From: Halorussus marinus
Lineage (GTDB): Archaea; Halobacteriota; Halobacteria; Halobacteriales; Haladaptataceae
Reading direction: 5' to 3'
Length of the DNA stretch: 64,000 nt
Assembly: GCF_004765795.1 (NCBI RefSeq)
Contig: NZ_SBIV01000011.1
Location: 1 to 64,000 of the forward strand
Part shown: positions 32,246 to 64,000 of the stretch, piece by piece
Layout: each line of letters begins with the position of its first letter
How positions within the stretch are numbered: position 1 is the stretch's first letter
Made by a program: the position numbers and the translations under genes
The notes under the pieces: generated by a model
The model's database searches: none
Told to the model about the DNA's origin: nothing
What the model saw: the letters and a program-made list of their open reading frames with translations, nothing else

Positions 32246-32288
32246 CCCAGCACAAGCATTTTGTCGCACTTGGCCATCTGACAATGTA

Positions 32289-39006: not shown

Positions 39007-39021
39007 GTGGGACGAACAAGT

Positions 39022-39995: not shown

Positions 39996-40108
39996 CCTTT
40001 GTTTAGTGACCGGGGGTTTGGTGACAGCGAAAGCAAGAACGGAAGGTTCGGTGAGTGTCTACCCCTTTGATTTTTCTCCTGGCCAAGTAGTGATTCTGTT
40101 ACACACGA

Positions 40109-41455: not shown

Positions 41456-41460
41456 GCCAG

Positions 41461-42693
41461 TCAGATCCCGACTGCTTGATGTAGCGCCCACTCGTTCGAT
41501 AGAACCTCGTCCTTGTCGTCGGTCCCACCTTCCGTGAGCAGTCCAATATGCCGGAGGTGGTATTTGAACTGAAAGTGAATGCCGGATTTGTACACGGTCG
41601 GATCGGTAAGCACGGATTCGTTGATGTCGCCGTCGGCCATGAGCACGTCCTCGCGCCTGGATTGGGTGATGAATACTTCTACGGCGAGTGGTTGGTTGAT
41701 GCGGCAGGCTTCTCGGACGACGGCGTCGATAGTAGCGGGTTTGATGCCGCGATGGTGGAGGCGTTCGAGAGCTTCGATGATGAGCTGCGTTGGCTCGTAC
41801 TGGATGGCGACTGAGCGGGCGAGTTGCGCCCAGCGAGGTGCGAGGTCGGTGAACGGTGTGGATCGGCCTTTCCAAGAGGCGAATTCGTCAAGTGCAGCAT
41901 CGACGGTTCCGTGTTGAGTGCGGGCGAAGCGGACGACTTCTGCACCGAGATGCGTGAGGGTCTCTCCACCGGGCTGATTATCGACGAGACCGAGAAGGAT
42001 AGCCCCGCGGCGGCCACCTGATACGCTGTTGATCACGTGCTCGGAGTAAACGTCAGGCGTGTCGTCATCTGCAGCGAGGGAGAGGGCGTAGCCGAGGTAG
42101 TTCTTCGGATGGTTGACTGGAAAACTGCCTTCGGTGAGTTGGTGCGTCGTGGCTTGAAACCGGATTGCGTCGATAGTGGTGGAGAAGTCGCCGACGCCCG
42201 TGACGCGAGCGGGTTCGATGAGCGTTGCGTCGTACGGGCTTTCGACGCCGATGACACCGATGTTAAGGTCGCGGGCCAGTGCCCGTGCCTGGTCGGTGAT
42301 GCTTTGGATAGGGGCAGCGACGTACCCGATGTTGACTTCGGACAAGTGGCCGTGCGCCTGGTTAATTCCAGTTCGGACATCAGCAGCACTCGGATCGCTG
42401 TTGTGGCCTTTCGCTTCGATTACCGTGACTGGGGTTGTTGCGGCGTCGGCGTTCAGGACTTCGAGAGCGGGCATTCCGACACCGAGGAGATCAGGTTCTC
42501 CGTCCGTGAGGCGAATCGTGTTGTACGGCGCGAGGCGACGATGTAATTCGTCAGGAATCTCCCACCCGCCCCACGAGGGTTTCGTGAACTGCGTTTCCGT
42601 GACAGCGTAATGGTCCGGGCTCGTATCGAGATCAGGGTAGAGAGTGTCCTTCGCGGCAGCGAGAACCGTGGGCTCGGTGAGAGTAGCTGCCAT
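41461..42693 (-). CDS. protein with N-terminal PD-(D/E)XK-like domain
   Basis: A 410-residue protein from ATG 42693 (an in-frame TTG at 42711 would add six residues). Residues 70-105, DGEPDLLGVGMPALEVLN followed by VTVIEAKGHNSD, show the EPD-x(n)-ExK order of a PD-(D/E)XK site, and GYVAAPIQSITDQARALA continues the fold as in restriction or Holliday-resolvase-like nucleases. The second half is helical (wHTH-like near 300-390). A TATA-like box on the minus strand at 42721-42730 is about 30 nt upstream. It is convergent with 40109-41455. I do not recognise a specific family; a DNA-degrading or competence-associated role is guesswork. Confidence 0.55.
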   Translation of the reverse strand: MAATLTEPTVLAAAKDTLYPDLDTSPDHYAVTETQFTKPSWGGWEIPDELHRRLAPYNTIRLTDGEPDLLGVGMPALEVLNADAATTPVTVIEAKGHNSDPSAADVRTGINQAHGHLSEVNIGYVAAPIQSITDQARALARDLNIGVIGVESPYDATLIEPARVTGVGDFSTTIDAIRFQATTHQLTEGSFPVNHPKNYLGYALSLAADDDTPDVYSEHVINSVSGGRRGAILLGLVDNQPGGETLTHLGAEVVRFARTQHGTVDAALDEFASWKGRSTPFTDLAPRWAQLARSVAIQYEPTQLIIEALERLHHRGIKPATIDAVVREACRINQPLAVEVFITQSRREDVLMADGDINESVLTDPTVYKSGIHFQFKYHLRHIGLLTEGGTDDKDEVLSNEWALHQAVGI

Positions 42694-42817
42694 TGCTACA
42701 GTCTTTCCCAACCTGTCGTCATTAAATTGGGCTGTCTGAGAATCATTCTAACCGTTCAAACGGGGACTCTTGTACAGAAAGCAGGGTCAGCTGGATATAG
42801 ACTTGATGCTAATGTCT

Positions 42818-47527: not shown

Positions 47528-49204
47528 TCAGCAGATCAGTAAGAACAACCAGAACGGCAGATAGCAGATGCTGATCTCGTCCTTCTCGATGACTAAGGAT
47601 TCGTCCTCTCTAACTTCCTTCGGCAGGCTGTCGGTGATGATGAACCGGTACGGTGCCTGGTAATCCAAGTCTCGGAGATCTTCACTATCGGATTCGGTGT
47701 GTTGGCCAGAGCCGGGGTCGAAGTCTTCGGCGATTGTTTCGGCGTTACCGGTGTGTGGGTGGTAGGAGAGGATGAAGGGGAGGACGTCCCCGTTGCGGTG
47801 GAGGATGTAGTCAATAAGGCCGGATTCGGTTTCTGTGTATTCGACGTCGTATGCTCCGACGGTGTATGCGAGGCGTTTGGCGTGGTCGAAGGCGACGGTG
47901 CGGGCGAGTTTGTACTCGAATTCATGGTTGAGCGTGTCTTGCTGTTCGTAGCCTTCGAAGCCGTGGTGTTCCTGCCGCTGTGAGAGGAGGACGAGGTGAC
48001 GTGGGTTGCGGAGATACAGGCGGGTGCGGCGGTAGCGTCGCAGGGAGTAGTCTTGTGATTCGGTGACGGCGATGCCTTCATCGAGTACGTCGAGGTAGTT
48101 GTCGACGGTTCGCCTGTCGACGCCGATTTGATCGCTGAGGTCAGTGTACTGGAGTTCTTCACCGGCGTTGGTGGCGGCGATGGAGCTGAGGCGGTGGAGG
48201 TTTTCGGGTTGTTGGATGGACCGGTACTTGGCGAGTTCTTTGTAGAGGAAGAGGAGGAAGTGAGATTTGGAGAGTTCGTTCCGGATCGATGGGTTGTCTG
48301 TCTGATGGAGAGTGCCGCCTGTGCGGAGGTATGCGCGCGCGGCGTCGTGAAGGTTGTCGCGGTCGTCCGCACCGAAAATGTCGAAGCAGAGTTCTGAGAG
48401 TGCCTCAACGGCCGTGTCGAGCCTGGTTTCAGAATCTCTTCTGGACAGCCCGGTTCGAATCGTCTTGATCGGCGATGGCCCGTCTAAGTCTGATGATTGG
48501 TATTGTTCGAGTCGGGTTCGGAATTCGTCATCGAAATCGACGCCGAGGCCTGCGCCGATTTGAACCGTGTCGATGAATTTCATCGGGAGGATCGGCCACA
48601 GTTCGAATTCCTCGACGGTGTCGGCGGATTCGGTAGTGGAGAGATCGACTTGGGATTCGACGATGCCGGTCAGGAATACGTACGTGTTCTCGTCAACGAG
48701 ATCGAGTAGCTCCGCTTTTTGATCCTCGTTGAGGTCAAGGGCTTGGACATCGTCGAGGAGGATGAATTTTTGTCCTTGCCGGGGTGCGACGTGGGTCTGG
48801 AAGTAGTCGATGACCTGGTTGAGGCGTTTGATGTCGTCGCCTGCGCGTTCGAGCTGGTAGAGGGAGTCTTCTAGGGGGATGTAGAGGATTTGCCGCGGTT
48901 CGATTGCAGAGGTGAGTTCGAGGTCTGTGTTTTGGTGTGGGAAGTTGGTCGTGTTGAGGAGCGCTGCGACGAGTTGGTGGAGAAGGGTGGTTTTGCCGAT
49001 GCCGGTCTGGCCGTGAATCGCGTAGACGAGACTCTCGACGCCGTCAGTGTAGTGGGCATTCGTCGTTTTGAGAACGCGGTGGAAATCAGATCGTGGGATG
49101 AGGTCTGTGGCTTCCGATAGTTCTGGAGAGGTGCCGTCACTCCACCACTGGTTGTGGTGTTCGGCGTCGTCGATGAACTCTTCTGCGCTCCCTGTCCCGA
49201 GCAT
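47528..49204 (-). CDS. P-loop ATPase with wHTH, AAA_14/DUF4143-like
   Basis: A 558-residue archaeal-type ATPase. Walker A is AIHGQTGIGKTTLLHQLV near residue 62, Walker B KFILLDDVQALDL near 147 and the sensor VFLTGIVES near 178. The middle part is helical. A winged helix near 350-390 (DLSDQIGVDRRTVDNYLDVL) and a C-terminal portion with PLPF-like FEYKLARTVAFDHA and VEYTETESGLIDYILH resemble the DUF4143 nuclease-like end of AAA_14 proteins, although the catalytic residues are not clear. Such proteins occur on mobile and defence regions. It is divergent from the Argonaute operon with 259 bp between them. Confidence 0.75.
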   Translation of the reverse strand: MLGTGSAEEFIDDAEHHNQWWSDGTSPELSEATDLIPRSDFHRVLKTTNAHYTDGVESLVYAIHGQTGIGKTTLLHQLVAALLNTTNFPHQNTDLELTSAIEPRQILYIPLEDSLYQLERAGDDIKRLNQVIDYFQTHVAPRQGQKFILLDDVQALDLNEDQKAELLDLVDENTYVFLTGIVESQVDLSTTESADTVEEFELWPILPMKFIDTVQIGAGLGVDFDDEFRTRLEQYQSSDLDGPSPIKTIRTGLSRRDSETRLDTAVEALSELCFDIFGADDRDNLHDAARAYLRTGGTLHQTDNPSIRNELSKSHFLLFLYKELAKYRSIQQPENLHRLSSIAATNAGEELQYTDLSDQIGVDRRTVDNYLDVLDEGIAVTESQDYSLRRYRRTRLYLRNPRHLVLLSQRQEHHGFEGYEQQDTLNHEFEYKLARTVAFDHAKRLAYTVGAYDVEYTETESGLIDYILHRNGDVLPFILSYHPHTGNAETIAEDFDPGSGQHTESDSEDLRDLDYQAPYRFIITDSLPKEVREDESLVIEKDEISICYLPFWLFLLIC

Positions 49205-49431
49205 ACAGTCGATTATTATAGGCTAGTACAAATATTCACGCATCTCGATGTCGCTATTCAGATTCTACTGTAGCTCTGCTGGCTATCTGGCCCAGTGTGG
49301 CAGTCTTTCGGTCCTCGGCGTCGTTCGACACTCCCTCAGAAGTGCCTCATCGGCGCGTCCCGAGGCGCTTTCTTTGAGTGTATTACCGCTAAAGTTGAGT
49401 TACCGTGTCTGAAGTTCGCCTAGTGGAAACC

Positions 49432-49439
49432 TATTTATT
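49432..49439 (+). promoter_or_regulatory. TATA box of the Argonaute operon
   Basis: TATTTATT is centred about 28 nt before ATG 49464, as expected for a near-leaderless haloarchaeal transcript. It would drive the five-gene Argonaute operon. Confidence 0.65.
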
Positions 49440-49463
49440 CTGGGCGTCCGTTGGTGGGCGTAG

Positions 49464-52142
49464 ATGGCAGTCAAGGCTGATATCGAGGATGGGAAAGAGA
49501 TCGACATCGCGCTGCGCGTCACAGGGATTGACGAGTGGGAGCACGATGCCATCGCTCGGAAGGTCCAGTTCGAGGACGTCGACGGCGCGGCGGTAGATCT
49601 GACAGTGTTCCACAACAACGATGTCGCGGACTTCGAGTGGCAGATCGGGGAGTGGTATCTCCTGGAGAACGTCGTCGGGAACGAGTTCCAGGGGGAGATG
49701 CAACTCAACCCAGGGTATGACCTCACTGTCACGCTGTTAGACGACCCTCCAGCCGCTGCCGAGAACGACGAGTTAGCCGAAGGTGATCCCGCGGAAGACT
49801 CTGTCGAGCAGTCCAAAGGGAGTGGGACTGCCGCGACAACATCGGATGCGTCCGATACTGAGGAGTTCGTTCGCGGAAGCGAGGTCGATGGTAATTCGCG
49901 GCCGACGGCTGATGGAGGCGGCGAGCTCCTGCATCAACAGCCGCTCTCAGACGGGAACTACCTGCTGCAGTTCGAGCTCGGAAAGTTGCCGGAGCTAACG
50001 GTCCACGAGTACGAACTCCGAGCGAGCGGGAGTGGCGGGATCGACCCTGACGATTTCACGAACGGGATTGAGGGGTTCTCGGCGAAGGCGGCGAACTACT
50101 ACCAGTCGCGGATCGGGAGTCCCGTGACGACGGCCGATGCGTCGCAGCGGCGTATCTACGCGACCGAGAAACTCAACAGCCCGATCTCGATTCACGGGTA
50201 TACGGTGAAGCCGGTCCATCAGGGCGAGACGACACTGGAAGCGCGCTCGTACACGGACGATGGGCCGCTACAGGAGTTCGTCAAGCAGGACGTGAAACGA
50301 GCCGTTACCGGGCGGTTCGAGGTGTCGGGGATCGATTCGATCATCGAGCCCACGCCGCAGCGGACCGCGAACAGCGGGCTGTTCGAAGCCTATCGGAAGT
50401 ACAAGTGCCGGATTCGTGTCGATGCTGACGGGACCGTGATTTGCGGCGTGAACGTCGCGTACCACTTGGAATCGACGTTCTCAGCCGCCGAGTGGGTGCA
50501 ACGCGGACAGGACATCGCCGATGTGACCGTTGAGCACGACACGGACCTGTACGACAGTGCACGCACGGCGACAGTCCAGGAGATCATCGACATGGACTAT
50601 GATGATGTGCTGGACGGGCCGGGCGTCCCGATGTCGGAGTACCACGAGAAACACGTCGATCAGGACGTCATCGATTCGATGCGAGCCGGCGACCCGGTCA
50701 TCGCTGATCTGCAGTACGGAAGCGGCGAGGACTCGATCTTCCCGCAGCTCTTGGAGTACTGTAAGGTCATCCCGACGTTCGACCAGTTGGGTCGCGTCGA
50801 TGACGCGTTCCTGGACGTCATCCACAACGAGAGCCGGATGAAACCCGAGGAACGTTTCAACGTCGTCACGTCGTTCGTCGACTTGCTCGGTCCGACACCG
50901 TACTTCAACTTCGACCCAAGCCCCCAACCCACGAACGCCGGGTATCGAGAACACAAGACGCCGGACATCCCGAACCTGCGGTTCGGTGGCGGACAAACGG
51001 GGTACTACGGGGCTGGCGGGCTGGAACGGAAGGGCTACGGCGTGTACAAGGCTCCAGAGTCATTCGACATCATCGCGCTGTATCCCGAAGACGAGGAGGA
51101 TGACGCGCGGCCGTACGTGCTCTCGCTGCTCAACAAGCTCGCAGAGTACAATGCGAGTCCAACAGCGTTCGACCGCGACACCTACGAACTCGGTTCGGAG
51201 TTCCACTACTCCCAGCCCGCGCAGAAAGCGAGTGACTACGATGCGGCACTGATCGTCGTTCCGGACGAAGACGAGGCTGCAGAAGCGGACTACGACGACC
51301 CGTATCCCGAGTTCAAGCGACGGCTCGGCCAACTCGGCGTGCCGAGTCAGATGATCTCCGTCGACAATCTCGGCAACGACAACTACCGCGGGAACATCTG
51401 CTCGTCCCTCATCGGGAAAGCGGGCGGGGTGCCGTGGCGGATCGACGACGTTCCTGGGGGCGTTGACGCGTTCGTCGGCCTCGACGTGACCTACGATCAC
51501 GCGACCAAGCAACACCTCGGCGCAGCCGCGAACGTCATCATGGCCGACGGAACCATCCTCGCGTCCGAGGCCGTCACGAAGCAGGCTGGCGAGACGTTCG
51601 ACGAGGACGACGTAGCGAACGTCATCAAGCACGTCCTGGAAATCTTCGCCGAAGAGGAAGGCCGACCACCGCGGCACGTGGTCATCCACCGTGACGGGAA
51701 GTTCTACCTCGACGTCGAGAGCCTCATCAACCGCCTCGACAAAGCCCGGGATCTCATCCAGCGGTTCGACCTCGTCGAGATTCGGAAATCCGGGAATCCC
51801 CGTATCGCCGAGTACGACGAGTCGAAATCCCGGTTCGATATCGCGGACAAGGGCGTCGCTTTCCACGTCCACAACGGCGACCACTCCTACCTGACCACGA
51901 CCGGTGGGAAGGAGGGCAGCCCTGGTACGCCACGACCGCTGCAGATCGTGAAACGCCACGGGTCGACAGACCTCGACACGCTCGCGGAGCAAACCTACTG
52001 GCTGTCTGAAGCGCACGTCGGGTCGCTGAGCCGCTCCACCCGGCTTCCCATCACCACGTACTACGCCGACAAGTGCGCCGACTTCGCCATGAAGGGCTAC
52101 CTCACCAAGGGGAGCGTCATCCGCGGCGTCCCGTACATCTGA
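49464..52142 (+). CDS. ago: long prokaryotic Argonaute with N-terminal OB-fold, NgAgo-like
   Basis: An 892-residue Argonaute. Residues 1-95 look like an OB-fold single-strand-binding domain (IDIALRVTGIDEWEHDAI, WQIGEWYLLENVV), the repA-like extension known from Natronobacterium gregoryi NgAgo, followed by an acidic linker to about 150. N and PAZ-like regions follow. The MID domain lies near 560-660 (GVPSQMISVDNLGNDNYRGN). The PIWI domain has a complete DEDD-type tetrad by alignment: D674 in FVGLDVTYD, E710 in QAGETFDED, D744 in VVIHRDGKF and D869 in TYYADKCADF. NgAgo ends with the same RLPITT and KGYL pattern, so it is a close relative in architecture. It probably cuts DNA or RNA using nucleic-acid guides. 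It heads a five-gene operon. Confidence 0.9.
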   Translation: MAVKADIEDGKEIDIALRVTGIDEWEHDAIARKVQFEDVDGAAVDLTVFHNNDVADFEWQIGEWYLLENVVGNEFQGEMQLNPGYDLTVTLLDDPPAAAENDELAEGDPAEDSVEQSKGSGTAATTSDASDTEEFVRGSEVDGNSRPTADGGGELLHQQPLSDGNYLLQFELGKLPELTVHEYELRASGSGGIDPDDFTNGIEGFSAKAANYYQSRIGSPVTTADASQRRIYATEKLNSPISIHGYTVKPVHQGETTLEARSYTDDGPLQEFVKQDVKRAVTGRFEVSGIDSIIEPTPQRTANSGLFEAYRKYKCRIRVDADGTVICGVNVAYHLESTFSAAEWVQRGQDIADVTVEHDTDLYDSARTATVQEIIDMDYDDVLDGPGVPMSEYHEKHVDQDVIDSMRAGDPVIADLQYGSGEDSIFPQLLEYCKVIPTFDQLGRVDDAFLDVIHNESRMKPEERFNVVTSFVDLLGPTPYFNFDPSPQPTNAGYREHKTPDIPNLRFGGGQTGYYGAGGLERKGYGVYKAPESFDIIALYPEDEEDDARPYVLSLLNKLAEYNASPTAFDRDTYELGSEFHYSQPAQKASDYDAALIVVPDEDEAAEADYDDPYPEFKRRLGQLGVPSQMISVDNLGNDNYRGNICSSLIGKAGGVPWRIDDVPGGVDAFVGLDVTYDHATKQHLGAAANVIMADGTILASEAVTKQAGETFDEDDVANVIKHVLEIFAEEEGRPPRHVVIHRDGKFYLDVESLINRLDKARDLIQRFDLVEIRKSGNPRIAEYDESKSRFDIADKGVAFHVHNGDHSYLTTTGGKEGSPGTPRPLQIVKRHGSTDLDTLAEQTYWLSEAHVGSLSRSTRLPITTYYADKCADFAMKGYLTKGSVIRGVPYI

Positions 52143-52205
52143 CCATGCGCCAGTACAGAACCACCCAACCACTCACGCATCCGTCGACACACCGGTAACC
52201 CTCGC

Positions 52206-54326
52206 ATGCCCAAGACTGAATTTGAAGCAACGGTCGAGTTCGATGACGGCAGCACCGCCGATCTGGAGATGGCTGCCGACAAATCATGGGACAGTTTCCT
52301 GAACTACTTCGGTGACGCCCAGCACGTTTACTGCGTCACGTACAGTCAGTCCCCCGCGTTCATCTACAAGATGTTTCAGAACCAGGACCTTGCAGTGGAT
52401 TCACTGGAGGTCATCGTCGGGGACAACCAGCACGACGACTACCGGCGGTCGCTGAAAAACACGAACAACGCGAAGAAAATCGCCGCGCAACTGGAATCTC
52501 TGCGCCAAGACGGTGATCTCCTCATTCACACCGTCGATTCCGCGCGCGTCCTCCTCCACACGAAGCTCTACATCGTCGAGAACCAGGACGGGTCTCGCAC
52601 ACTCATCTGTGGGTCGGCGAACCTCTCCAAGCAGGCCTGGCAGGGGAGCAAACAGACCAACGTCAACATGGCCTGGCGTACCGACGGAGATACGCCCGTC
52701 GACGAGTGGTTCGAACGGCTCTACGCGTTCCACAAGGACTACGCGACGCCGTTCATGGAAGACCTCACAGAGGAGATCGAGGACGCCGACACGGCAGAAG
52801 AAGAGGCGAAGATCTACGACATCTGGCTAGGCGGCGACGAGTTCAGTGACGACCCGGTCGCCGAGCTGAACGCCCGGCTCGATGAAGCAGTTGACGACGA
52901 CCAAGTCAATACGTACAACGTCGTCACTGACGCCGAAGACGCAGAGAAGGCGGTGTTCGCCGCTGAAGATACGGATACCGACCCGACAGAGATCAGTCCG
53001 GACAAGCGTGTGCGGCTCTCCCCGCAAGGTCTCGAAGACGCCATCTCGAATCTGGACGACACGCTGTCGGCCAATAACATCCGTATCAACGACGGGGAAA
53101 TCGTAGCGACACCAGCCGGGATCGCACGGTACAAAGAGACCTTCACGGGATACCCGGACCTCAACGTCGACAAGGAGGCAAACACGGTCGGGCTCCGGGT
53201 TGACGACTCCGTCCTCGAATTAACGGCACCGCTCCCGGATGACCCGCAGGAAGTCGCTGACGCGCTCGACCTGATCGAACAGTACGTCGAAACGGTCGGC
53301 GAGTTCGGCGAAACGCGAACGACGAAGGAGACGCGCGCGCACTTCTACGAAGGGGTAATCTACTTCTGCTGGGCTCCGTTCGCCAACTACTGCGCCCACC
53401 ACTACGCCGAATACGAATCCGCGGAACTGGACAAGGACCTGCCGTTCCTGTTCCTTCACGGCGACAACGACAGCGGGAAAGGCATGTTCCTACGGTTCGG
53501 GGCGCGACTCATCTCGAACGGGTACGTACAGGAGGTCACGACCGGCGACGACTTTGTCAAAAACAACATCGAGCGTGCTCGTGCATCGGACACTGTTTTC
53601 CCGTACATCGTTGACGACGTGGCGAAGTCGAAGATCGACCGAGACATCATCAAGTCGTACTGGGAGGGGAAGTGGGACGGCTCTATCCAGATGCCGACGT
53701 TCATCTTCTCCTCGAACGACTCGACGAAACCCAAATCCGAACTCCGGACCCGCATGAAGACGCTGGACTTCAACGTCAACTTCTCCGAACTGGAGAAGGA
53801 CGAACGGGAAGCCGCCGCGCAGATCGCGGGGGAAGCGGACAGCTGTAACCTGTTCCCGTGGTTCGCCCACCTGTTCCTGCAACGGGATATCTCGCTGCCA
53901 GACCAGGCAGACCGGCTCGCGGATGCTCGGGATGTGTTCGCGGAGCTGTACGCGTATGCCGAAAAGGAACCACCAGAGTATGTGCCACTGGAGAAACCCG
54001 CCGAGCAAGAACACGACCCGGGGCGTCGAAAATGGATCAGCGCGCTGTCCGACGGGCTGTGTGAGCTCGACTTCAAGGACGACGGGCGTGTCATCGCTGA
54101 TTTCTCAGCGAATCTGGATCAGCAGCAGTGCTGGGAGTTCCAGAAAGCCACGCCAGCCCATATCCGGGCAGGGATTTACGGGCCGGCGGTTCAGTTTGAA
54201 AGCGCAAACAGGTTCAAGAACTGGATAGATGAGCCCAGTATCATCGAAGATGCACGACGCGACACGGAGACGGCCGCTGACGACACCGGTGTTCTGTCTC
54301 GGGTCACACGGCTCGTCCGAGGATAA
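52206..54326 (+). CDS. PLD domain fused to P-loop ATPase, Argonaute operon
   Basis: A 706-residue fusion protein. The first part (residues 1-200) is a PLD-like module: LHTKLYIVENQDGSRT near 117 and ICGSANLSKQAW near 135 form one HxK...GSxN half-site. Residues 200-400 are acidic. A P-loop ATPase follows with Walker A LHGDNDSGKGMFLR near 417, Walker B FPYIVDDV near 468 and the sensor FIFSSNDSTKPKSELRTRM near 500. This sequence resembles SF3/D5-type viral and plasmid helicase ATPases. The gene is 63 bp after ago and 5 bp before the next gene, same strand. A single PLD half-site would need a dimer. Role inferred: nuclease-translocase acting with Argonaute. Confidence 0.68.
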   Translation: MPKTEFEATVEFDDGSTADLEMAADKSWDSFLNYFGDAQHVYCVTYSQSPAFIYKMFQNQDLAVDSLEVIVGDNQHDDYRRSLKNTNNAKKIAAQLESLRQDGDLLIHTVDSARVLLHTKLYIVENQDGSRTLICGSANLSKQAWQGSKQTNVNMAWRTDGDTPVDEWFERLYAFHKDYATPFMEDLTEEIEDADTAEEEAKIYDIWLGGDEFSDDPVAELNARLDEAVDDDQVNTYNVVTDAEDAEKAVFAAEDTDTDPTEISPDKRVRLSPQGLEDAISNLDDTLSANNIRINDGEIVATPAGIARYKETFTGYPDLNVDKEANTVGLRVDDSVLELTAPLPDDPQEVADALDLIEQYVETVGEFGETRTTKETRAHFYEGVIYFCWAPFANYCAHHYAEYESAELDKDLPFLFLHGDNDSGKGMFLRFGARLISNGYVQEVTTGDDFVKNNIERARASDTVFPYIVDDVAKSKIDRDIIKSYWEGKWDGSIQMPTFIFSSNDSTKPKSELRTRMKTLDFNVNFSELEKDEREAAAQIAGEADSCNLFPWFAHLFLQRDISLPDQADRLADARDVFAELYAYAEKEPPEYVPLEKPAEQEHDPGRRKWISALSDGLCELDFKDDGRVIADFSANLDQQQCWEFQKATPAHIRAGIYGPAVQFESANRFKNWIDEPSIIEDARRDTETAADDTGVLSRVTRLVRG

Positions 54327-54331
54327 CAGTC

Positions 54332-56392
54332 ATGTCTGACCACTCACCTCACCGGCGATTCGACGGGACATTAGTCACGGCACCGTTCGGGGGCGAAAAC
54401 GTCGAACGGACAGCGCGGGACGAATACCGAGCGCTCCTCGACGAGCACGATTCTGAGGATGTGCTCGTCGTCACGGGTGCGCCGACGAGTACCGACACGT
54501 TCCGCGAGACGTTAGGTGAGGAACTGTCGGGTGCGGCGACGCCGTACGTGACCTCGCTCGTCGTGCACGCGACCGATGTCCTCAACCAGACTGATGACCG
54601 CGTCATTCTCTCCGACGCGCTGCGGCGAGAACTCCTCCACCGATTCCTCGAAGAGTACGAGTGGGACACGGAGTACCTCCAGCAGGCGTCTGAACAGCCG
54701 TCATTCATCGAGGACGTGGACGCCGTGATGAGCACGATCTCCTGGCAGACAGTCACGCCTGACGAAACCCCGGAACTCCGTGACATCACGGCTGCGCTCG
54801 ATGCATTCCACGAGTGGCTGGCCGAGCACGGCCACATGGAACGCGGGCAACTCATTTCGGAAGCGCTCGATGTCCTCACCGGGGATGCCCGCGGCGATGT
54901 CGTCGATTTCGAGGCGGTACTCGCGTTCGAGTTTGAGGAATTCTTCCCGCTCGACCGCGCGTATCTCGACGCGCTCGCAGGAGACTGTGACCTCGTCTGT
55001 ATCGCCGAAGAGAACGCGAGTGTACGCCGCACATGGGTCGAAACAGGACCCGTTACGGACTACGTCTCCTTCAGCGAATCTCGTCGCGGAGCCTCGGAGA
55101 CGTCGTCGACGCGACCGGCTGCCACAGCATCGTACTTCGCCGACGAGACGGCTCCGGCAGACCCGGAAACAGGGTCGGTGTCCGTCCTCGCTACGGACTC
55201 CAGTGACGAGCAACTCGCCGAGGTTGCCAACGAGATCGAATCCCTCGTCGGGCGGTCGGGCTGGAACTACGACGATATCGCGGTCGCCACGAAACAAAGC
55301 GGGAGTGCGGTTACGGACACTATCGAAGCGTTCGAACAAACCGGCATCCCGGCGGAATCGACGACTGTCACTGGATTCGGCGACGACCCCGCGATTCGGG
55401 AACTCCTCGCTGCCGTCCGGTATCTTGCTGCCGACGACGAGGATGAAGTGCCCGACCGCGCCCCGGAGATCGATACAGAGCGCTTAGACCGTGTCCACGA
55501 GATGGACAGCCTCGAAGATGGGCTTCGCTGGTGGGCGACTGACTCGGGATTGAAAGAGCGAATTGCGGAACGCGCGACCCCGCTGGACGCGCGGGCGCAG
55601 TTCGGGAACGTCAAGCGGGCGTTTCGGATGGCCGAGCTCCTCGAAGACACTGCGTTCGTGGATGCCACGTGGGAGTCCGTCGAGGAGATGCTCGAACGCG
55701 CCCACGAGTACGCACCGCAACAAAACCAGACGAGTGCGACGGATCTCAACGGCGGCGTCCGCGTCGATCACTTGCAAGCCATCAAGAACGAATCGTTCCG
55801 CGCGGTGTTTCTCGTGAATCTCGTCGACAGTGAGTACCCGGGTGACCCGTTCCTGACGCGGTTGTTCCCGACCGAGCGGGTCGCGGCGATGCCGGACTAC
55901 CCTGGCGTCACGGAGCTCGACGAACCGGACGTAGATGCGACGTTCCCGACGACGTCGACGGCGTCGAGCCGGCCGTTCGCCCGGTACCACACGGAACACG
56001 CGCGGCGACGCTTAGCGATTGGGGCTGATGCTGCCGACGAGCACCTGTACTGTTGTCTGTACGAATTCGAAGACACTGCGCTGGAAGAGCGTGCGCAGGC
56101 GTCGCGGTTCCTCACAGAGGCGTACGACCGCCTCCCGTGGGTCACCGACGCCGACGACCCACACATCACGAGCGAGCAAGCGGCAGAGGACTTCCTGTTG
56201 TCGCGGGTTGACGACGCGCTCGCCCAAGTGCGGCGCGCAAACAGTCAGGACCTGACGGTGTCGCTTGACGAGCTAGAAGCGGAGCTCGGCGAGATCCAGG
56301 ACCTGCTTGATCAGAGCGGAGCGCGTGGCGAGGACCTCCGGAAGGCATTGCGTGCGCGCGTCGAGTTCGCTAACGGGGAGGTGCGGCGATGA
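54332..56392 (+). CDS. AddB/RexB-like helicase-derived subunit without P-loop
   Basis: A 686-residue protein similar in layout to the AddB/RexB family. The N-terminus, GTLVTAPFGGENVERTARDEY, is where AddB has Walker A (GxxGxGKT), but no such motif is present. VVDFEAVLAFEFEEFFPLDRAYLDAL near residue 190 (short FEEFFPLDRAYL) matches motif II region of UvrD-like folds. AVATKQSGSAV and LQAIKNESFRAVFLVNLVDSEYPG (HLQAIKNESFRAVFLVN, short form) near 482 parallel motif V, and RRRLAIGADAADEHLYCC motif VI. It seems an inactive helicase-fold scaffold, pairing with the AddA-like protein. It overlaps the RecB-like nuclease gene by four bases (56389-56392). Confidence 0.65.
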   Translation: MSDHSPHRRFDGTLVTAPFGGENVERTARDEYRALLDEHDSEDVLVVTGAPTSTDTFRETLGEELSGAATPYVTSLVVHATDVLNQTDDRVILSDALRRELLHRFLEEYEWDTEYLQQASEQPSFIEDVDAVMSTISWQTVTPDETPELRDITAALDAFHEWLAEHGHMERGQLISEALDVLTGDARGDVVDFEAVLAFEFEEFFPLDRAYLDALAGDCDLVCIAEENASVRRTWVETGPVTDYVSFSESRRGASETSSTRPAATASYFADETAPADPETGSVSVLATDSSDEQLAEVANEIESLVGRSGWNYDDIAVATKQSGSAVTDTIEAFEQTGIPAESTTVTGFGDDPAIRELLAAVRYLAADDEDEVPDRAPEIDTERLDRVHEMDSLEDGLRWWATDSGLKERIAERATPLDARAQFGNVKRAFRMAELLEDTAFVDATWESVEEMLERAHEYAPQQNQTSATDLNGGVRVDHLQAIKNESFRAVFLVNLVDSEYPGDPFLTRLFPTERVAAMPDYPGVTELDEPDVDATFPTTSTASSRPFARYHTEHARRRLAIGADAADEHLYCCLYEFEDTALEERAQASRFLTEAYDRLPWVTDADDPHITSEQAAEDFLLSRVDDALAQVRRANSQDLTVSLDELEAELGEIQDLLDQSGARGEDLRKALRARVEFANGEVRR

Positions 56393-57294
56393 GCCAGGAG
56401 TCGCTCTCACCGTCGGCGTTAGCCACGTACGCGACGTGTCCACGACTGTACGACTACAGAGAAGTTCAAGACGTGAACGCCCCGGACCGAACCGAACTCT
56501 ACCTCAACCAGGGGACGATCTACCACGAGACAATCGAGGACGTGTGTGAGGCGACCGACCGCGACGACCCACCAGAGGTGATTCACGACCGGGCCATGCG
56601 GATTTTCGATGCGAAGTGGGACGAACACAGTAGCGCCGACGACTATGAATCACGCGCACACCGGGAGTACCAGCGTGCTGAGAACCGGGCTGCTATCGAG
56701 TCGTTCTTCGCGCCCGATGGCGGCGTCGGTATCAGCCACGCCCGTCGCTCAATCGCCACCGAGTGCTGGGTAGAGTGCGAAGTAGATGGGCGAGGACTCC
56801 ACGGGAAAGCAGACAACGTCATCCGGACGGACGACGGCCTGCACATCTTCGACTACAAGCGGAAAACCCACGGGATGCTCTCCGACGGGACAGCTGAGTA
56901 TCTCGGCGAGCATCTCGACGGGGAGGCCCACGAGCCGAAGCGTGTGCGGAATGCGTTCCAGACGGCAGCGTACATCGAGGGCGTGAAGAACGAACCGTTC
57001 TACGAGGACGGGATGGAGGTCCAGTTCAGTTTCTACGGTCTCCTCAACAGCACGTCGTTCGAGAGTACCCCTACCGGGTACGATGTGTCTGCACGCGGGT
57101 GGGGTCGGGAAACGACTGAGATTTACGACGACCACTATGACACAATCTGGGCGCTCATACGGGATACACACGACGGCATCACGGGCGAGACCTTCGAGCC
57201 AGAGCCGTTCGAGCTCATCAACGAGGAGGCGTGCCCGGACTGTGACTATCGAGAGATGTGTGCTGACCGCTTGTCGACGGAGGTACGCCGATGA
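56389..57294 (+). CDS. Cas4/RecB-family PD-(D/E)XK nuclease with Fe-S site
   Basis: A 301-residue nuclease. LSPSALATYATCPRLYDYRE supplies the first Cys (CPRLY) and the conserved start of RecB-type nucleases. GTIYHETIED contains the catalytic His. GKADNVIRTDDGLHIFDYKRK carries the D and D-x-K of the active site near residue 145, and AFQTAAYIEG the QxxxY motif. The end, CPDCDYREMC, provides three more Cys, as in the 4Fe-4S cluster of Cas4 and AddB nucleases. It overlaps the genes before and after by four bases (56389-56392 and 57291-57294), a sign of a joint complex. This nuclease lobe probably completes the AddB-like subunit that lacks its own. Confidence 0.82.
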   Translation: MSQESLSPSALATYATCPRLYDYREVQDVNAPDRTELYLNQGTIYHETIEDVCEATDRDDPPEVIHDRAMRIFDAKWDEHSSADDYESRAHREYQRAENRAAIESFFAPDGGVGISHARRSIATECWVECEVDGRGLHGKADNVIRTDDGLHIFDYKRKTHGMLSDGTAEYLGEHLDGEAHEPKRVRNAFQTAAYIEGVKNEPFYEDGMEVQFSFYGLLNSTSFESTPTGYDVSARGWGRETTEIYDDHYDTIWALIRDTHDGITGETFEPEPFELINEEACPDCDYREMCADRLSTEVRR

Positions 57295-60200
57295 GCGACG
57301 ACAGTGACGAGCACCCGTCGTGGTTCCCTGTCCCGGAAGAGGACGTCTCCCCGGAGCCCCAGCAGCGGACGATTATCAACTCCGACGCGTACCCGATGCG
57401 TGTGCTCGCCGGGGCAGGGACGGGGAAGACGTTCACGATGGTGCGGAAGATCGAGCACCTCATCGACGAGGAGGACGTGTCGCCGGACCGGATTCTCGCG
57501 TTGACGTTCACGAACAACGCCGCGGACTCGATGCGTGAAAAACTCAACGCGAAACTCGGCGCGGCCGGGTACGACATCGACGCGTACACGTACCACTCCA
57601 TCTGTAACGAGATCCTCACCGACTACGCGTACGAAGCTGGGATCGATCCGGATTTCGAGGTCGCCACGGACGCCGAGAAGTACGCCATCGTGCTGGACGT
57701 CCTGGACGACATCGAATACCGGTCTGTGAAACCAAACGTGTACGGGAGCGACGGGTACGCGTCAGGGGCCGCGTCGAAGCTGCTCAACTTCATCGGGTCG
57801 ATGAAGCGCAGCGGCATCACGCCCGACGACATCGACGCGTTCCTCGGCCCTGCTGACCGCGTCTACGAACTCGCCGACCTCTCGGAGCGCGTCGAAAACA
57901 TCGCCAGCGATCATCTGGGCGGCCGGTCCGTGTCAAGCGTGCTGGATTCGCTTCCAGACGCGCGTGCTGACCTTGTCGCTGAGCGCGACGCACTCGGGAC
58001 CCAGGGTATCGAAGCCAGCGTCCGCGACTTCCTCGACCGCATCATCGAGCTTTGCGACGAGTTGGAAGCAGCGTTCGAAGCCCACGAGGCGGGCGACCAA
58101 GCGTTGCCGGACAACGCGTACAAGCTCCCGAAGTATCTGCTTGGAGGGTACGCGAACGGTGCGCCGAAGGGGATTCCGGACGATCTTGACCTCGAACTCA
58201 CGGAGCATCTCGACTCGTTCCTCTCGGACTGTCTCACGGCCCGTGACCTGACAGCGGGCTATGCGGCGTATGAGCGTGAACTCGACGAGCGGAACCTCAT
58301 CGACTTCGACGGCCTCGTCGTGGAGACGGCCGCACTGATGGACTCGCCGGTCGGCGAGGAAATCGCTGACCGGTGGGACTACGTATTCTGTGACGAGTTC
58401 CAGGACACCGACCGGCTGCAGTTCGATCTCGTCACGTCGCTGGTCACCGACGACAACCTGTTCGTCGTCGGTGACGACGATCAGGCGATCTACGAGTGGC
58501 GTGGCGCGAACGTCGCCAACATCACCGACGAACTCGACCGCGCGTTCGCCGCACTTGAAGATGAACCGTTAGAAGAGAACTTCCGGTCCCGACAGCCGAT
58601 CCTCAACCTGGCGAACGAAGCAATTCAGAAGCTCGACCACCGCGAACGACACAAGACACTGAAACGCGTCAACGAACCCGCCTACGACGGCGACACCGTC
58701 GCAACCGTCGAACTGCCGGACGAGGACGATGCGGACGGCGCGACCCAGCTTCGCACCGTCGTCCAGAATCTGCTGAGCGGCGCAGCAGACAACCTCGAGG
58801 AGGCGTACAACCCGGGCGACATCGCGTTACTCGTTCGGAAGAACGACCACGCGACGCCGGTCATCGAGGAGTTCGAGGATGCCGGCATCCCGTACCAAGT
58901 TGCTGGTGATCTGGCTACGGAATCAGTCGGCGTCGGCACCGTGACTGCCTACCTGAAGGCGCTCGCGCGGCCCGAAGACGAGGTGAGTTGGAATCGCGTC
59001 CTCCTGATGCGGTACCGGCTCTGCGATGCGGACCTCCGGACGCTCAACGCGGGCGACGACCCGCTCGTGGACACACTGTGCGGGACGCCGCTCGACGAGT
59101 TCGAGGAACCCGACCGCGTCGCAGAAGCCCGCGAGCACGCCACGGAACTACTCGAACTCCGCGACTCAGCGTCGCTCAGTCACCTGTACCGCGAACTTAC
59201 GGACATCACGAACATCGAGTGGTACCTCAGCGAACAGGAACGCCGGGATCTCGCCCAACTGGAGGATGTCATCGAACAGTACGGGGATAGTGCCGTCCAA
59301 CCACCGCTCACCCCGGAGTTCATCGACTCGCTCGAACACTACGACTCCCTGTTCGACGAGAGCGGCTCGACACCGACGAGTCAGCCGGACGTCGCCGACG
59401 ACGCGGTCAACGTGATGACCATCCACAAGAGCAAGGGCCTGGACTTCCCGGTCGTCCTCATCCCGCAAGTCACGGCCGACGAGTGGGCACCGAGCTCACG
59501 TACCTACGACGCACTCGAAACGGGGCTCTCGGATGGCGCGGAGGCGGCGTTCGCCGAGGACTTCGTCGAGCGTGACGGGCGTGAAACCCGGCGCGTGTTC
59601 CACGTCGGAATCACGCGCGCCGAAGACGTCCTCGTCCTCCAGGGCGGCATCGAGGACGACGACGATGCTGCGGACGTGCACCCGGTTTCAGAGGCCGTCG
59701 ACGAGATTCTCCCAGCCCGAATCCCGTGGCAGCCAGCGCGCGGGCAGCTCCCGCTCTGGACCGACGTTCAGGAGTGTCTCCCGGATGATGCGGCAGATTG
59801 GACAGACACGCTGGCAAGCGAGACTGTCGGGCGCGTTGGAGGGACCGTCACTCACGACGGCGACGAACTCGCAGTCGAAGCTGCGCGCGACCGCGTGCTA
59901 GACCTCGCAACAGCCACCCTCAACGGAGATCTCTCACCGGGGGCCGAGCGAGAGACACTCCAAGTGACGTCGCTGAACGGCCCGTCGACACCGTCACCAT
60001 CGCTCTCGCACAGCTACACGTCGCTGGCAGCCTACGAGGAATGCCCGCGGAGCCACTACCTAGACTACGTGGTCAACGCATTCCCCGACTATCAGGATGC
60101 GACGAATGAAGCCCGGGATGGTGTTTCGCAACGTGAGATCGGGTTGCTGTTCCACGACACTGCAGAGCAAGCCGCGAACCAAGCTGTGGACCGGGGTGCG

Positions 60201-60746
60201 GAGTGGTACGAAATCTGTGAGCGCCTCGCCAGTCAACGCCGAGCCGAGGACGCGCTCCCGGCGGCGAAACAGTGTATCGACCGGTACTTCGAATTAGACT
60301 TCCCCAGCTACGAGCTGATCGATGCGGAGCGAGAGTTCGAACTCGACATCGATGGGCACGAACTCGTCGGATACATCGACGCCGTCTACCGGACGCCAGA
60401 CGATGAGTTGCTCGTCATCGACTACAAGGCCACCGAACGTCACCGCGACCTGGAGGACGACAAGCAACTCCCGATCTACCTGTTGGCATGTCGTGACCTG
60501 TACGATGAGTCCGTCGCACGTGCGGGGTACGCCTATGTCGGTGAGATAGGGCCGACGGTCGAGTCCCGAACATTCAGCGACGGTGACCTGGCGGCGGTCA
60601 GGGACGACGTGACGGCGTCGATGACCCGTATTGCCGAGTTCTCCTTCGGTCGGTACACTGCTGGTGACCACTGTCAGTGGTGTCAACACAACCAACTGGC
60701 CTGCGCGCCGGATTCGTTCACGGTCGGACCAGGATTCGAGGAGTGA
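57291..60746 (+). CDS. AddA/UvrD-like helicase-nuclease of the Argonaute operon
   Basis: A 1151-residue SF1 helicase with a C-terminal nuclease. Motif I is VLAGAGTGKTFTMVRKIE near residue 40, Ia ALTFTNNAADSM, motif II FCDEFQDTDRLQFD near 367, motif III VVGDDDQAIYEWRGA, motif IV ENFRSRQPIL, motif V MTIHKSKGLDFPVV near 708 and motif VI VGITRAEDVL. A RecB-type PD-(D/E)XK nuclease follows: YTSLAAYEECPRSHYLDY, HELVGYIDAVYR, LLVIDYKATER and DDKQLPIYLLA with CQWCQHNQLAC as the Fe-S end. It is the last gene of the operon. It could unwind and resect broken or incoming DNA and so supply Argonaute with fragments, as RecBCD does for some bacterial Argonautes. Confidence 0.88.
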   Translation: MSDDSDEHPSWFPVPEEDVSPEPQQRTIINSDAYPMRVLAGAGTGKTFTMVRKIEHLIDEEDVSPDRILALTFTNNAADSMREKLNAKLGAAGYDIDAYTYHSICNEILTDYAYEAGIDPDFEVATDAEKYAIVLDVLDDIEYRSVKPNVYGSDGYASGAASKLLNFIGSMKRSGITPDDIDAFLGPADRVYELADLSERVENIASDHLGGRSVSSVLDSLPDARADLVAERDALGTQGIEASVRDFLDRIIELCDELEAAFEAHEAGDQALPDNAYKLPKYLLGGYANGAPKGIPDDLDLELTEHLDSFLSDCLTARDLTAGYAAYERELDERNLIDFDGLVVETAALMDSPVGEEIADRWDYVFCDEFQDTDRLQFDLVTSLVTDDNLFVVGDDDQAIYEWRGANVANITDELDRAFAALEDEPLEENFRSRQPILNLANEAIQKLDHRERHKTLKRVNEPAYDGDTVATVELPDEDDADGATQLRTVVQNLLSGAADNLEEAYNPGDIALLVRKNDHATPVIEEFEDAGIPYQVAGDLATESVGVGTVTAYLKALARPEDEVSWNRVLLMRYRLCDADLRTLNAGDDPLVDTLCGTPLDEFEEPDRVAEAREHATELLELRDSASLSHLYRELTDITNIEWYLSEQERRDLAQLEDVIEQYGDSAVQPPLTPEFIDSLEHYDSLFDESGSTPTSQPDVADDAVNVMTIHKSKGLDFPVVLIPQVTADEWAPSSRTYDALETGLSDGAEAAFAEDFVERDGRETRRVFHVGITRAEDVLVLQGGIEDDDDAADVHPVSEAVDEILPARIPWQPARGQLPLWTDVQECLPDDAADWTDTLASETVGRVGGTVTHDGDELAVEAARDRVLDLATATLNGDLSPGAERETLQVTSLNGPSTPSPSLSHSYTSLAAYEECPRSHYLDYVVNAFPDYQDATNEARDGVSQREIGLLFHDTAEQAANQAVDRGAEWYEICERLASQRRAEDALPAAKQCIDRYFELDFPSYELIDAEREFELDIDGHELVGYIDAVYRTPDDELLVIDYKATERHRDLEDDKQLPIYLLACRDLYDESVARAGYAYVGEIGPTVESRTFSDGDLAAVRDDVTASMTRIAEFSFGRYTAGDHCQWCQHNQLACAPDSFTVGPGFEE

Positions 60747-61854: not shown

Positions 61855-62067
61855 CGTCGGTCAGCGGCTGCCTCGGAAACCACTCCTCTCTGAGTGGCTG
61901 GCGTACTGCGGATCGTGCCCGCAGCGAGGTATGTGAGAGACCCAAAAGAAACTAACCGGCTTCACCGCCGGGGAACCAGTAGCGACGCTCGTCCGTATCC
62001 GCCAACCCCTGTCCCGTCCCCGATAACGAGCGGCGGGACAGCCCACTCACCGGTCGCTCCAGTAGGG

Positions 62068-64000
62068 TTGGACGCACGGCGGCGTGAACAGGTAGACACC
62101 GTCATCCAGCGGTTGACGAGCGACGGACACGAGATTCCAGCACCGTTTTCGAAGCGAGAGCTGTACCAGACTGCTGCAGACGTTGGAATCGAGGTGTGGA
62201 AACCCGCAGTAAAGAACCGAGTCACCGAGCGTGTACTCGACCGACTCAGCTACGAGTGGGACTCAGCCTCTCGAACCTTCGCACCGGTCGTCACGGATGA
62301 ACTCATCGAAGACATTCACCGAGCAGCAGACACCATCAGTCCAGCATTCGACCCGAAACTGTCCGAGTCGCTCCACAAACAACTCCAGGAGTGGTGCGAA
62401 CTGCACGGAATCGGGTCGATAGAAACAGGGGCGGTACAGAGAACTGTTGCGCGACACGCCATCCTGAGTGTTCTTCTAAAAGCGACGGTGTACGAGTGGT
62501 ACCGGTGTCACGGCGTTGTTCCACCACTCACCAATTCGGTACAACAGGCGTTTCACAACGCACGGAAGCAGACACTAGACAGAACGTTCGATCAGTTCGT
62601 TCTTGACCACGTCGCGGAACTGGCTGATGAGGACCTCCTGGAATCTACGTTGGCTCACCGGGATCGATTGCTCTTCTCACCCCAGCCAACGGAAGAGATT
62701 GGGAAGCTCTACGCGGAGCTAACACCGAGCGAGTATCGACAGTCACTCGGGCAGTTTCGGACACCGCCGGAAATTGCAGTGACGATGAAGTCCTGGGCAA
62801 ACCGCGATGTCGACCACCTTCTCGACCCTGGAATGGGAGCCGGCGTACTATCCAGCACGTTTCACCCGCGCTGGAGTCTGAACACTGACCCCACGCACAT
62901 CGACGGGATCGAACGTAGCCCCCTCGCACGGCTCATGGGCGCGACAGCACTCACGTTGGGTGGACAGCTGAATACGCCACGAACACACGACTTCCTCACT
63001 CTTGATCCAGACGAACTGCAACACGACATCGGCGGGATCGTGTGCAACCCCCCATACACGAGCGGGGACGCGCTCCCGAAAGAGTACAAAGAACAGATCA
63101 ACGCCGACATAGAGCAATCGACAGGAATCGACGTCAGTGCGCGATCACCACTCTACACGTACTTCATGTACCACAGTCGGTCGTTCCTATCTTCGGGCGA
63201 CCGTGCAGCGTTCCTCACGCCGGATAGTTTCCTCACGACAGCCTACGGCGACTCACTCAAACAGTTCCTACTTGACGAGTTTTCCATCACTGCTCTCGTC
63301 CAGTTCGACCCCGAAGGCGAGTCGGTCTTCGAGGACGCCCAAGTCACCGCACTCGCTTGCTTCTTAGAAGCAAGTTCTGGCGGTAACGAGGGGGTGACGC
63401 GCTTCATTCGCGTGGACGAGTCCATCGATTCGAGTACGCTTCGTAACGCAGTGCAGAATGGGGAGCAGGGTGAGACTGAGTGGGGATTCATCAATCACGT
63501 GCCGCAAGCGGATCTCGTACCCCGGCAAAACTGGGCAGCACTATTCGATCCCTGCGACGTAGATACAAGCGAGCTGACTGAGCTCGGCGAGTTCGTCACG
63601 ATCCACCGCGGGAAGTCCACCGGCGATGTAACCTTTTTCTGCCTGACCCAGGACGAAGTCGACGAGTCCGGAATCTCTGAGAAACACTTGTCTCAACTCA
63701 TTCGCCAACCAAAGCTCGTCCAGGGGTACGATTTCCGTGGAGAAGATTGGGAGAAATTACAGGCTGCTGGTGAGGAGGTGTGGCTACTAGACCCAGACAA
63801 ACTACCAGAAGTCCAGAAGTCACGGGAGGACTTCGAGAAGCAAGTGCTATTCAACGCTGACTCGCTCCCAAGGAACAGCAACGGCGAGGTGCCGAACGTC
63901 GTTTCGTATCTACAGGATAGCGTCTACCGGACCAATCCGCTCGGAGCGAACGTAATCGAGAACCGCCCGTACTGGTATCGCCCCCGTCGACAAGCCTCAC
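62068..64000 (+). CDS. class I N6-adenine DNA methyltransferase, runs off the window
   Basis: An open frame of about 644 codons to the window end with no stop. The N-terminal 240 residues are helical. DPGMGAGVLSS at about residue 255 is the SAM-binding motif I, IDGIERSPLARLMGA a motif II with the acidic residue, and IVCNPPYTSGDAL near 328 the catalytic NPPY of N6-adenine methylases. RAAFLTPDSFL and FLLDEFSITALVQFD follow as in Eco57I/TaqI-like and PglX-like enzymes, and a specificity region with GEFVTIHRGKSTGDVTFF begins near 505. The start is uncertain: TTG 62068 is one option, and the frame is open back to a GTG at 61933 with low-quality coding. No ATG fits. It could be a stand-alone type IIG-like or BREX/DISARM-type enzyme. 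Confidence 0.78.
   Translation, partial: MDARRREQVDTVIQRLTSDGHEIPAPFSKRELYQTAADVGIEVWKPAVKNRVTERVLDRLSYEWDSASRTFAPVVTDELIEDIHRAADTISPAFDPKLSESLHKQLQEWCELHGIGSIETGAVQRTVARHAILSVLLKATVYEWYRCHGVVPPLTNSVQQAFHNARKQTLDRTFDQFVLDHVAELADEDLLESTLAHRDRLLFSPQPTEEIGKLYAELTPSEYRQSLGQFRTPPEIAVTMKSWANRDVDHLLDPGMGAGVLSSTFHPRWSLNTDPTHIDGIERSPLARLMGATALTLGGQLNTPRTHDFLTLDPDELQHDIGGIVCNPPYTSGDALPKEYKEQINADIEQSTGIDVSARSPLYTYFMYHSRSFLSSGDRAAFLTPDSFLTTAYGDSLKQFLLDEFSITALVQFDPEGESVFEDAQVTALACFLEASSGGNEGVTRFIRVDESIDSSTLRNAVQNGEQGETEWGFINHVPQADLVPRQNWAALFDPCDVDTSELTELGEFVTIHRGKSTGDVTFFCLTQDEVDESGISEKHLSQLIRQPKLVQGYDFRGEDWEKLQAAGEEVWLLDPDKLPEVQKSREDFEKQVLFNADSLPRNSNGEVPNVVSYLQDSVYRTNPLGANVIENRPYWYRPRRQAS

What the first reader, a model, noticed from the sequence alone, without database searches (positions are those of the whole stretch)
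49464..60746. NgAgo-like Argonaute in an operon with AddAB-like machinery
Seen: OB-fold-Ago with a full catalytic tetrad (D674, E710, D744, D869), then PLD-ATPase, AddB-like, Cas4/RecB nuclease and AddA-like helicase-nuclease, with spacings of 63, 5, -4 and -4 bp from one TATA box. Known: some bacterial Argonautes obtain DNA guides from RecBCD-processed ends. Inference: here the helicase-nuclease complex is dedicated to Argonaute, making DNA fragments that become guides, or degrading targets after cutting. This gives a natural context for the NgAgo type, whose biology is disputed.
Basis: partly seen in the sequence, partly recalled or inferred. Interest (0 to 1): 0.75.

Follow-up and report, generated by a model that had tools for sequence, protein, structure and literature searches.

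The report
Argonaute operon with attached DNA-degrading machine
In salt-loving archaea, an Argonaute gene, a nuclease-ATPase gene, an AddAB-like DNA-unwinding and -degrading machine and a divergent ATPase gene travel between genera as one six-gene block with sharp edges, which makes a link between Argonaute and DNA-end processing directly testable; but the degrading machine also lives on without Argonaute, and the famous Argonaute NgAgo does not have it.

Summary
In detail: genes, spacings and catalytic tetrad check out. It is more than chance. DNA homology to other copies starts at or near the stop of the divergent upstream ATPase gene (47528) and ends at or near the AddA stop (60746), with differing flanks, in 15 loci from many haloarchaeal genera. 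It is a new variant of the haloarchaeal Argonaute-PLD ('APAP') defence system, extended by a three-subunit AddAB-like helicase-nuclease.

Against 'dedicated to Argonaute': the AddAB-like trio is widespread without it; four Ago-free copies carry remnants of the lost PLD gene, and such trios stay under purifying selection. Against 'context for NgAgo': NgAgo is about 26% identical and lacks these neighbours. For coupling: other Ago lineages sit beside different end-processing machines (fused AddAB-like; Mre11-Rad50-NurA-HerA; SF1 helicase-Mre11-Rad50), 10 of 32 Ago loci against 1 of 42 methylase loci within 8 kb.

Most likely mechanism (inferred): Ago and PLD cut invader DNA, and the AddAB-like enzyme destroys it from the ends, perhaps recycling fragments as guides.

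The parts
47528..49204 (-). Divergent AAA-type ATPase with DUF4143 (called U1 here), 558 aa; sixth member of the module
   Evidence: Pfam AAA_14 2.9e-11, DUF4143 6.5e-9; homology between copies begins at or near its stop codon; 61-66% identical copies beside Ago-PLD loci that lack the trio, 57% beside Ago-free trios
49205..49463 (.). Shared divergent promoter region; 259 bp here, 255-260 bp in other copies
   Evidence: Conserved mainly at both ends: TATTTAT 49432-49438 preceded by CTAGTGGAAAC (49420-49430) for Ago; CTAGTAC/CAAATATTC 49223-49237 for the minus-strand ATPase gene
49464..52142 (+). Long-A prokaryotic Argonaute, OB-fold N-terminus, catalytic DEDD tetrad D674 E710 D744 D869
   Evidence: PDB nearest CpAgo and CbAgo
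52206..54326 (+). AgaP-type protein: N-terminal PLD nuclease (H118xK120, GSxN at 136) and C-terminal P-loop ATPase (GDNDSGKG at 419)
   Evidence: 32% identical to the PLD protein of the N. pellirubrum locus (L045)
54332..56392 (+). AddB-like subunit, SF1 helicase fold without a Walker A motif, nuclease domain split off
56389..57294 (+). RecB/Cas4-type PD-(D/E)XK nuclease with the Cys pattern of a 4Fe-4S cluster (C17, C282, C285, C291)
   Evidence: Pfam PDDEXK_1 5e-23, motifs
57291..60746 (+). AddA-like UvrD helicase with Walker A (40) and C-terminal PD-(D/E)XK nuclease with Cys pattern
   Evidence: homology between copies ends at or near its stop

Best explanation
A mobile six-gene anti-invader module: a haloarchaeal Argonaute-PLD (APAP-type) system extended by a three-polypeptide AddAB-like helicase-nuclease and a divergent ATPase. 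Shown by sequence: the six genes form one discrete inherited unit; Ago, PLD, both RecB-type nucleases and the AddA motor keep their catalytic motifs; the AddB-like subunit is a helicase fold without a Walker A motif. Inferred: Ago, guided by short invader-derived strands, and the PLD-ATPase cut or nick plasmid or viral DNA; the AddAB-like complex loads on the resulting ends, unwinds and degrades the DNA, and some fragments may be loaded into Ago as new guides. The trio is a modular degradation engine that can also serve other cutters (McrBC) or act alone, not a dedicated guide factory.
For: Common edges near 47528 and 60744-60746 in 15 copies with differing flanks; synteny in 14 of the 15 loci that are informative for the trio outside the plasmid set, plus a plasmid copy; near-identical copies in different families (96% DNA identity between the window and G272); dN/dS 0.04-0.17 in all six genes; conserved promoters at both ends of the intergenic region; motifs. 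Coupling: other Ago lineages next to AddB-fused+AddA (L049, L051, L053), Mre11/Rad50/NurA/HerA-type genes (L054, L059-L061, L063, L068), SF1 helicase-Mre11-Rad50 (L174; L042 similar); 10/32 vs 1/42 within 8 kb. PLD-ATPases without Ago also sit beside such machines (L152-L158, L167-L171). Degradation rather than guide supply: trio kept after Ago loss and found behind McrBC. Precedent: CbAgo, a near relative among Agos of known structure, is reported to degrade invader DNA in collaboration with E. coli RecBCD (PMC10164581); NpAgo-AgaP restricts plasmid and virus (PMC11442185).
Against: No experiment on any trio member. NpAgo-AgaP works in a heterologous host without a trio (PMC11442185), so the trio is not essential to the basic mechanism. 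One Ago 80% identical (L041/L079) has none of the partners. AddB has been exchanged in at least one copy (G088: AddB 75%, Ago 89%), and Mantel correlations of AddB with Ago and PLD are weak (r 0.30 and 0.23), so trio and Ago-PLD are not tightly co-evolved. Defence-island clustering could explain part of the association.
Confidence: 0.55

Rival explanations
1. Dedicated guide factory: the AddAB-like complex exists to make DNA fragments that become Ago guides.
For: Contiguous, partly overlapping genes behind one conserved TATA; guide loading of CbAgo is reported to depend on its own nuclease activity and on the cell's double-strand-break repair machinery (cited in PMC9040764).
Against: The trio occurs in 20 surveyed genomes at 75% identity or more without this module, survives Ago loss under purifying selection and sits behind McrBC, which needs no guides. 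The studied APAP locus of N. pellirubrum has no trio.
Confidence: 0.2
2. Independent neighbours: two or three separate defence systems (APAP; an AddAB-like system that works alone; the ATPase) stacked in a transferred defence cassette without functional coupling.
For: The trio alone, with McrBC, with the AAA/DUF4143 ATPase, or after Ago loss is common; the window is a defence island; weak co-evolution of AddB with Ago and PLD.
Against: 5-bp spacing of PLD to AddB and 4-bp overlaps; fixed gene order and common edges in many copies while flanks change; recurrence with unrelated end-processing machines in other Ago lineages.
Confidence: 0.25

Closest known systems
APAP system (Argonaute + AgaP PLD protein) of Natrinema pellirubrum, Cheng et al. 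2024, PMC11442185
   Same: Long-A catalytic haloarchaeal Ago followed by a PLD-ATPase of the same family, 63-bp gap inside the published 31-64 bp range; same divergent ATPase gene near the N. pellirubrum locus (63% identical, L045)
   Different: Ago 37% and PLD 32% identical; PLD motif spacing 18 residues from H to G (118 to 136) instead of about 50; no AddAB-like trio in N. pellirubrum. The paper mentions only that a helicase gene neighbours some ago-agaP operons
Bacterial AddAB (and RecBCD, AdnAB)
   Same: AddA-like motor with C-terminal nuclease; AddB-like helicase fold; second RecB-type nuclease with Cys pattern
   Different: AddB nuclease is a separate polypeptide; archaeal; carried in defence modules; no evidence on Chi-like control
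CbAgo working with host RecBCD
   Same: Related catalytic Ago, link to a RecBCD/AddAB-type enzyme
   Different: There the enzyme is the host's general repair machine, not encoded with Ago
NgAgo of Natronobacterium gregoryi
   Same: OB-fold N-terminus and DEDD tetrad, haloarchaeal long-A Ago
   Different: 26% identity over 834 aligned residues, separate clade, DUF2797 gene upstream, none of the five neighbours
Gabija GajB and other UvrD-type defence helicases
   Same: PADLOC GajB and RTasHel models hit the AddA helicase core
   Different: No GajA match among the module's proteins; fused RecB nuclease; AddB-like partner

Membership tests
APAP (haloarchaeal Ago-PLD) system | Long-A pAgo with complete DEDX tetrad | tested here: met
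   D674, E710, D744, D869 aligned with NpAgo
APAP (haloarchaeal Ago-PLD) system | Adjacent PLD-family gene of the AgaP family with short gap | tested here: met
   63-bp gap; 32% identity to the PLD protein of the N. pellirubrum locus in a common alignment
APAP (haloarchaeal Ago-PLD) system | Split HxK / GSxN motif (about 50 residues apart), reported as a feature of AgaP | tested here: not met
   H118, G136; the split is limited to the N. pellirubrum-type branch and some Ago-free relatives. Hence 'variant of', not 'the same as'
APAP (haloarchaeal Ago-PLD) system | Restriction of plasmid and virus; AgaP toxicity relieved by Ago | not testable with these tools
   needs experiment
AddAB helicase-nuclease | AddA: SF1A motor plus C-terminal RecB nuclease | tested here: met
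   UvrD 9e-61, PDDEXK_1 2e-23, Walker A, D-DYK
AddAB helicase-nuclease | AddB: helicase-fold subunit with its own RecB nuclease and Fe-S cluster | tested here: inconclusive
   Helicase fold and AddB similarity found; nuclease with Cys pattern is a separate gene (P0004); complex formation unknown
AddAB helicase-nuclease | Chi-regulated DNA-end resection | not testable with these tools
   needs biochemistry
NgAgo clade | Groups with NgAgo in an Ago tree | tested here: not met
   NgAgo (L066, with L067) falls in the other major clade (quick tree)
NgAgo clade | Shares genomic context with NgAgo | tested here: not met
   DUF2797 neighbour, no PLD/AddAB genes in the stretch read around L066
Gabija | OLD-family nuclease GajA together with GajB | tested here: not met
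   no GajA/OLD match among the module's proteins

The most novel reading that the evidence does not exclude
Haloarchaeal Argonaute/PLD-ATPase systems are built on a common principle: guide-directed or PLD cutting coupled in one locus to an exchangeable DNA-end-resection machine (AddAB-like; Mre11-Rad50-NurA-HerA; SF1 helicase-Mre11-Rad50), so that target destruction and guide supply form an amplification loop comparable in logic to primed CRISPR adaptation or piRNA ping-pong.
Probability: 0.3. Interest if true: 0.8.

Novelty: new variant of a known kind. Interest (0 to 1): 0.62.

Why it matters
Where prokaryotic Argonautes get their guides, and what destroys the target after cutting, are open questions; in the bacterial case studied in E. 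coli the host RecBCD is involved. Here nature has put an AddAB-like enzyme in the same operon, and other resection machines beside related Agos, so the coupling can be tested genetically in a tractable haloarchaeon. I found no earlier description of this operon in the held literature: Cheng 2024 notes a neighbouring helicase in some cases; Ryazansky 2018 (PMC6299218) lists UvrD/PD-(D/E)XK, Cas4 and PLD proteins near pAgos but could not define operon compositions.

Tried and rejected
Reading the five genes as the whole unit: rejected, because homology extends to 47528 and includes the divergent ATPase. 'Trio specific to Ago': rejected. NgAgo as closest relative: rejected. The fused AddB-type gene as an Ago-specific partner in the second lineage: rejected as general, since it is in 79 of 392 genomes, mostly without Ago; only its adjacency in three loci stands. 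RNase H-like + Hrq1-like helicase pair beside several Agos: noted but not counted as evidence, since I could not exclude that it is a housekeeping pair. One search was a malformed alignment request and gave nothing. Fold search of the PLD protein gave clear hits only for the PLD domain; its ATPase resembles a SaPI primase-helicase only weakly. Literature searches for Ago with AddAB in haloarchaea and with HerA/NurA or Mre11-Rad50 brought up no paper whose title or abstract describes such loci; those papers were not read through.
Full report
Observation. All five ORFs, their order, strand and spacings are as stated, the tetrad residues are at the stated positions, and the domain calls hold. AddB is the weakest call by sequence alone; a profile of 20 relatives has AddB of AddAB as its best PDB hit (1.4e-8), and a predicted model has the UvrD/AddB helicase fold. 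It lacks a Walker A motif, and a RecB-type nuclease like the one at the end of bacterial AddB is the separate 301-aa gene, so the trio resembles one AddAB enzyme in three polypeptides with two nuclease sites.

Is it more than chance? In 392 Halobacteriales genomes, 45 hold an Ago relative at E below 1e-20; 12 (the window's genome included) have one at least 80% identical. Eleven of these 12 have ATPase-Ago-PLD-AddB-nuclease-AddA in the same order (one with a broken PLD gene, G326); one (G389/L041) has Ago alone. Further complete copies are in Halosimplex salinum, Halosimplex pelagicum and Natronomonas gomsonensis and on a plasmid of Salinigranum marinum; the Haloferax profundi contig ends inside the PLD gene. 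DNA homology with the window starts between 47358 and 47532, that is, at the stop of the divergent ATPase gene (47528) or slightly beyond it, and mostly ends between 60697 and 61027, at or near the AddA stop (60746); a few copies share more on the right (G272 to 63463). The closest copy (G272, another family) is 96% identical in DNA over 16 kb. This is a discrete, horizontally moving unit of six genes. The intergenic region between the ATPase gene and Ago has nearly the same length in all copies and is conserved mainly at its two promoter ends. dN/dS is 0.04-0.17 for all six genes in the pairs tested.

Is the trio dedicated to Ago? No. AddB relatives occur in 136 of 392 genomes (a lower bound, as only two candidates per genome were scored), at 75% or more in 31, of which 11 have the module. 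The trio stands next to McrBC genes (L113, L122; a McrC gene in L146), MoxR-type AAA genes, a sacsin-like giant gene, or the AAA/DUF4143 ATPase without Ago (L132-L138). Four Ago-free loci keep 3' remnants of the PLD gene directly upstream of an intact trio, starting at different points (window 53382, 54037, 54150, 54166; loci L118, L115, L119, L113), and L113 also keeps the ATPase gene's 3' end joined to the PLD 3' end. In an AddB tree, Ago-linked and Ago-free copies are interleaved (quick method, moderate support). Between pairs of Ago-free trios dN/dS is 0.06-0.32, mostly 0.09-0.20, not far from the Ago-linked ones. So Ago and PLD were lost repeatedly, while the trio stayed under selection.

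Is there coupling at all? Other Ago lineages have other resection machinery. L049, L051 and L053 have a 1.1-kaa AddB-type protein with fused nuclease plus a UvrD-PDDEXK protein, directly upstream of Ago in the first two and on the opposite strand in the third. L054, L060, L061 (same strand) and L059, L063, L068 (convergent) have Mre11-, Rad50-, NurA- and HerA-like genes, not all four in every stretch read. L044 and L048 have Mre11-Rad50 and further genes, with HerA seen in L048. A Salinigranum rubrum plasmid with a 51% identical Ago has an SF1 helicase-Mre11-Rad50 set instead of PLD and trio. Using only the AddB, fused-AddB and NurA searches, 10 of 32 Agos outside the window clade have one within 8 kb, against 1 of 42 N6-methylase loci of the same genomes not near an Ago (Fisher p = 7e-4; 12/32 vs 3/42 at 12 kb, p = 0.003). 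The test ignores relatedness of the loci and uses a single control family, so the p values are too small; several separate arrangements are involved. PLD-ATPase genes without Ago also sit beside such machines: with the AddAB-like trio (L152-L156) and with Mre11-Rad50-NurA-HerA-type genes (L157, L158, L167-L171). The constant partner may therefore be the PLD-ATPase rather than Ago.

NgAgo. The Ago of L066 (887 aa; its N-terminus and contig length fit, from memory, NgAgo and the N. gregoryi SP2 chromosome) is 26% identical to the window's Ago over 834 columns, lies in another clade and has DUF2797 and none of the five genes in the 20 kb read. About 20-35 kb away the same chromosome has a PLD-ATPase with Mre11-Rad50-HerA genes (L171), which may or may not be related. 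The N. pellirubrum locus, where Ago+AgaP were studied, is NC_019963.1 = L045/L175: the ATPase gene, Ago and the PLD gene are there, with a DEAD helicase, but no trio.

Mechanism. Shown by others: NpAgo+AgaP restrict a plasmid (needs AgaP's catalytic site) and a single-stranded DNA virus (mainly needs Ago's) (PMC11442185); CbAgo is reported to cause DNA degradation together with E. coli RecBCD (PMC10164581). Shown here: a complete AddAB-like set encoded with such a pair. Inferred: cutting by Ago/PLD makes ends, and the trio degrades from them and may feed guides. Its retention without Ago and its place behind McrBC favour a general end-degrading role over a dedicated guide factory. The role of the divergent ATPase is open; its 57-66% identity across loci whose Agos and PLDs are only about 33% identical points to recent exchange or strong constraint.

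Verdict. Real, well conserved, not described in the literature held here as far as I could search; a new variant of the APAP kind.

Noticed in passing
window 24288-42711 and 61894-64000: The Ago module lies in a defence island: DrmD-like SNF2 helicase (24288), DrmMI-like methylase (27167), DruE-like 1768-aa protein (32289), HNH (38020) and Mrr-type (40109) nucleases, and a methyltransferase after the module (61894).
   Followed up: partly
L157, L158, L167-L171: PLD-ATPase genes of the AgaP family next to Mre11-Rad50-NurA-HerA-type genes without Argonaute, in several haloarchaea including the presumed N. gregoryi chromosome: possibly a defence system of its own.
   Followed up: partly
L132-L138 with L152-L156: Plasmid-like contigs with divergent AAA/DUF4143 ATPase, AddAB-like trio, a 375-aa unknown gene and a PLD-ATPase, but no Argonaute.
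   Followed up: partly
L059-L070: A DUF2797 gene lies upstream of Ago, mostly immediately, in all loci of the NgAgo clade seen.
   Followed up: no
L055, L056: Ago directly behind a 1276-aa Eco57I/MmeI-type methylase-restriction protein and two unknown genes.
   Followed up: no
L046, L048, L055-L057, L069, L070, L152-L156: A pair of RNase H-like (HHH) and Hrq1-like (MZB) helicase genes is a frequent neighbour of Ago or PLD-ATPase loci; whether it is a housekeeping pair was not tested.
   Followed up: no
L113, L122, L146: AddAB-like trio beside McrBC-type genes, in L113 behind them on the same strand: a restriction-plus-degradation combination.
   Followed up: partly
window 49223-49226 and 49420-49423: The motif CTAG lies beside both divergent promoters and is invariant in 11 copies; possible operator.
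   Followed up: no
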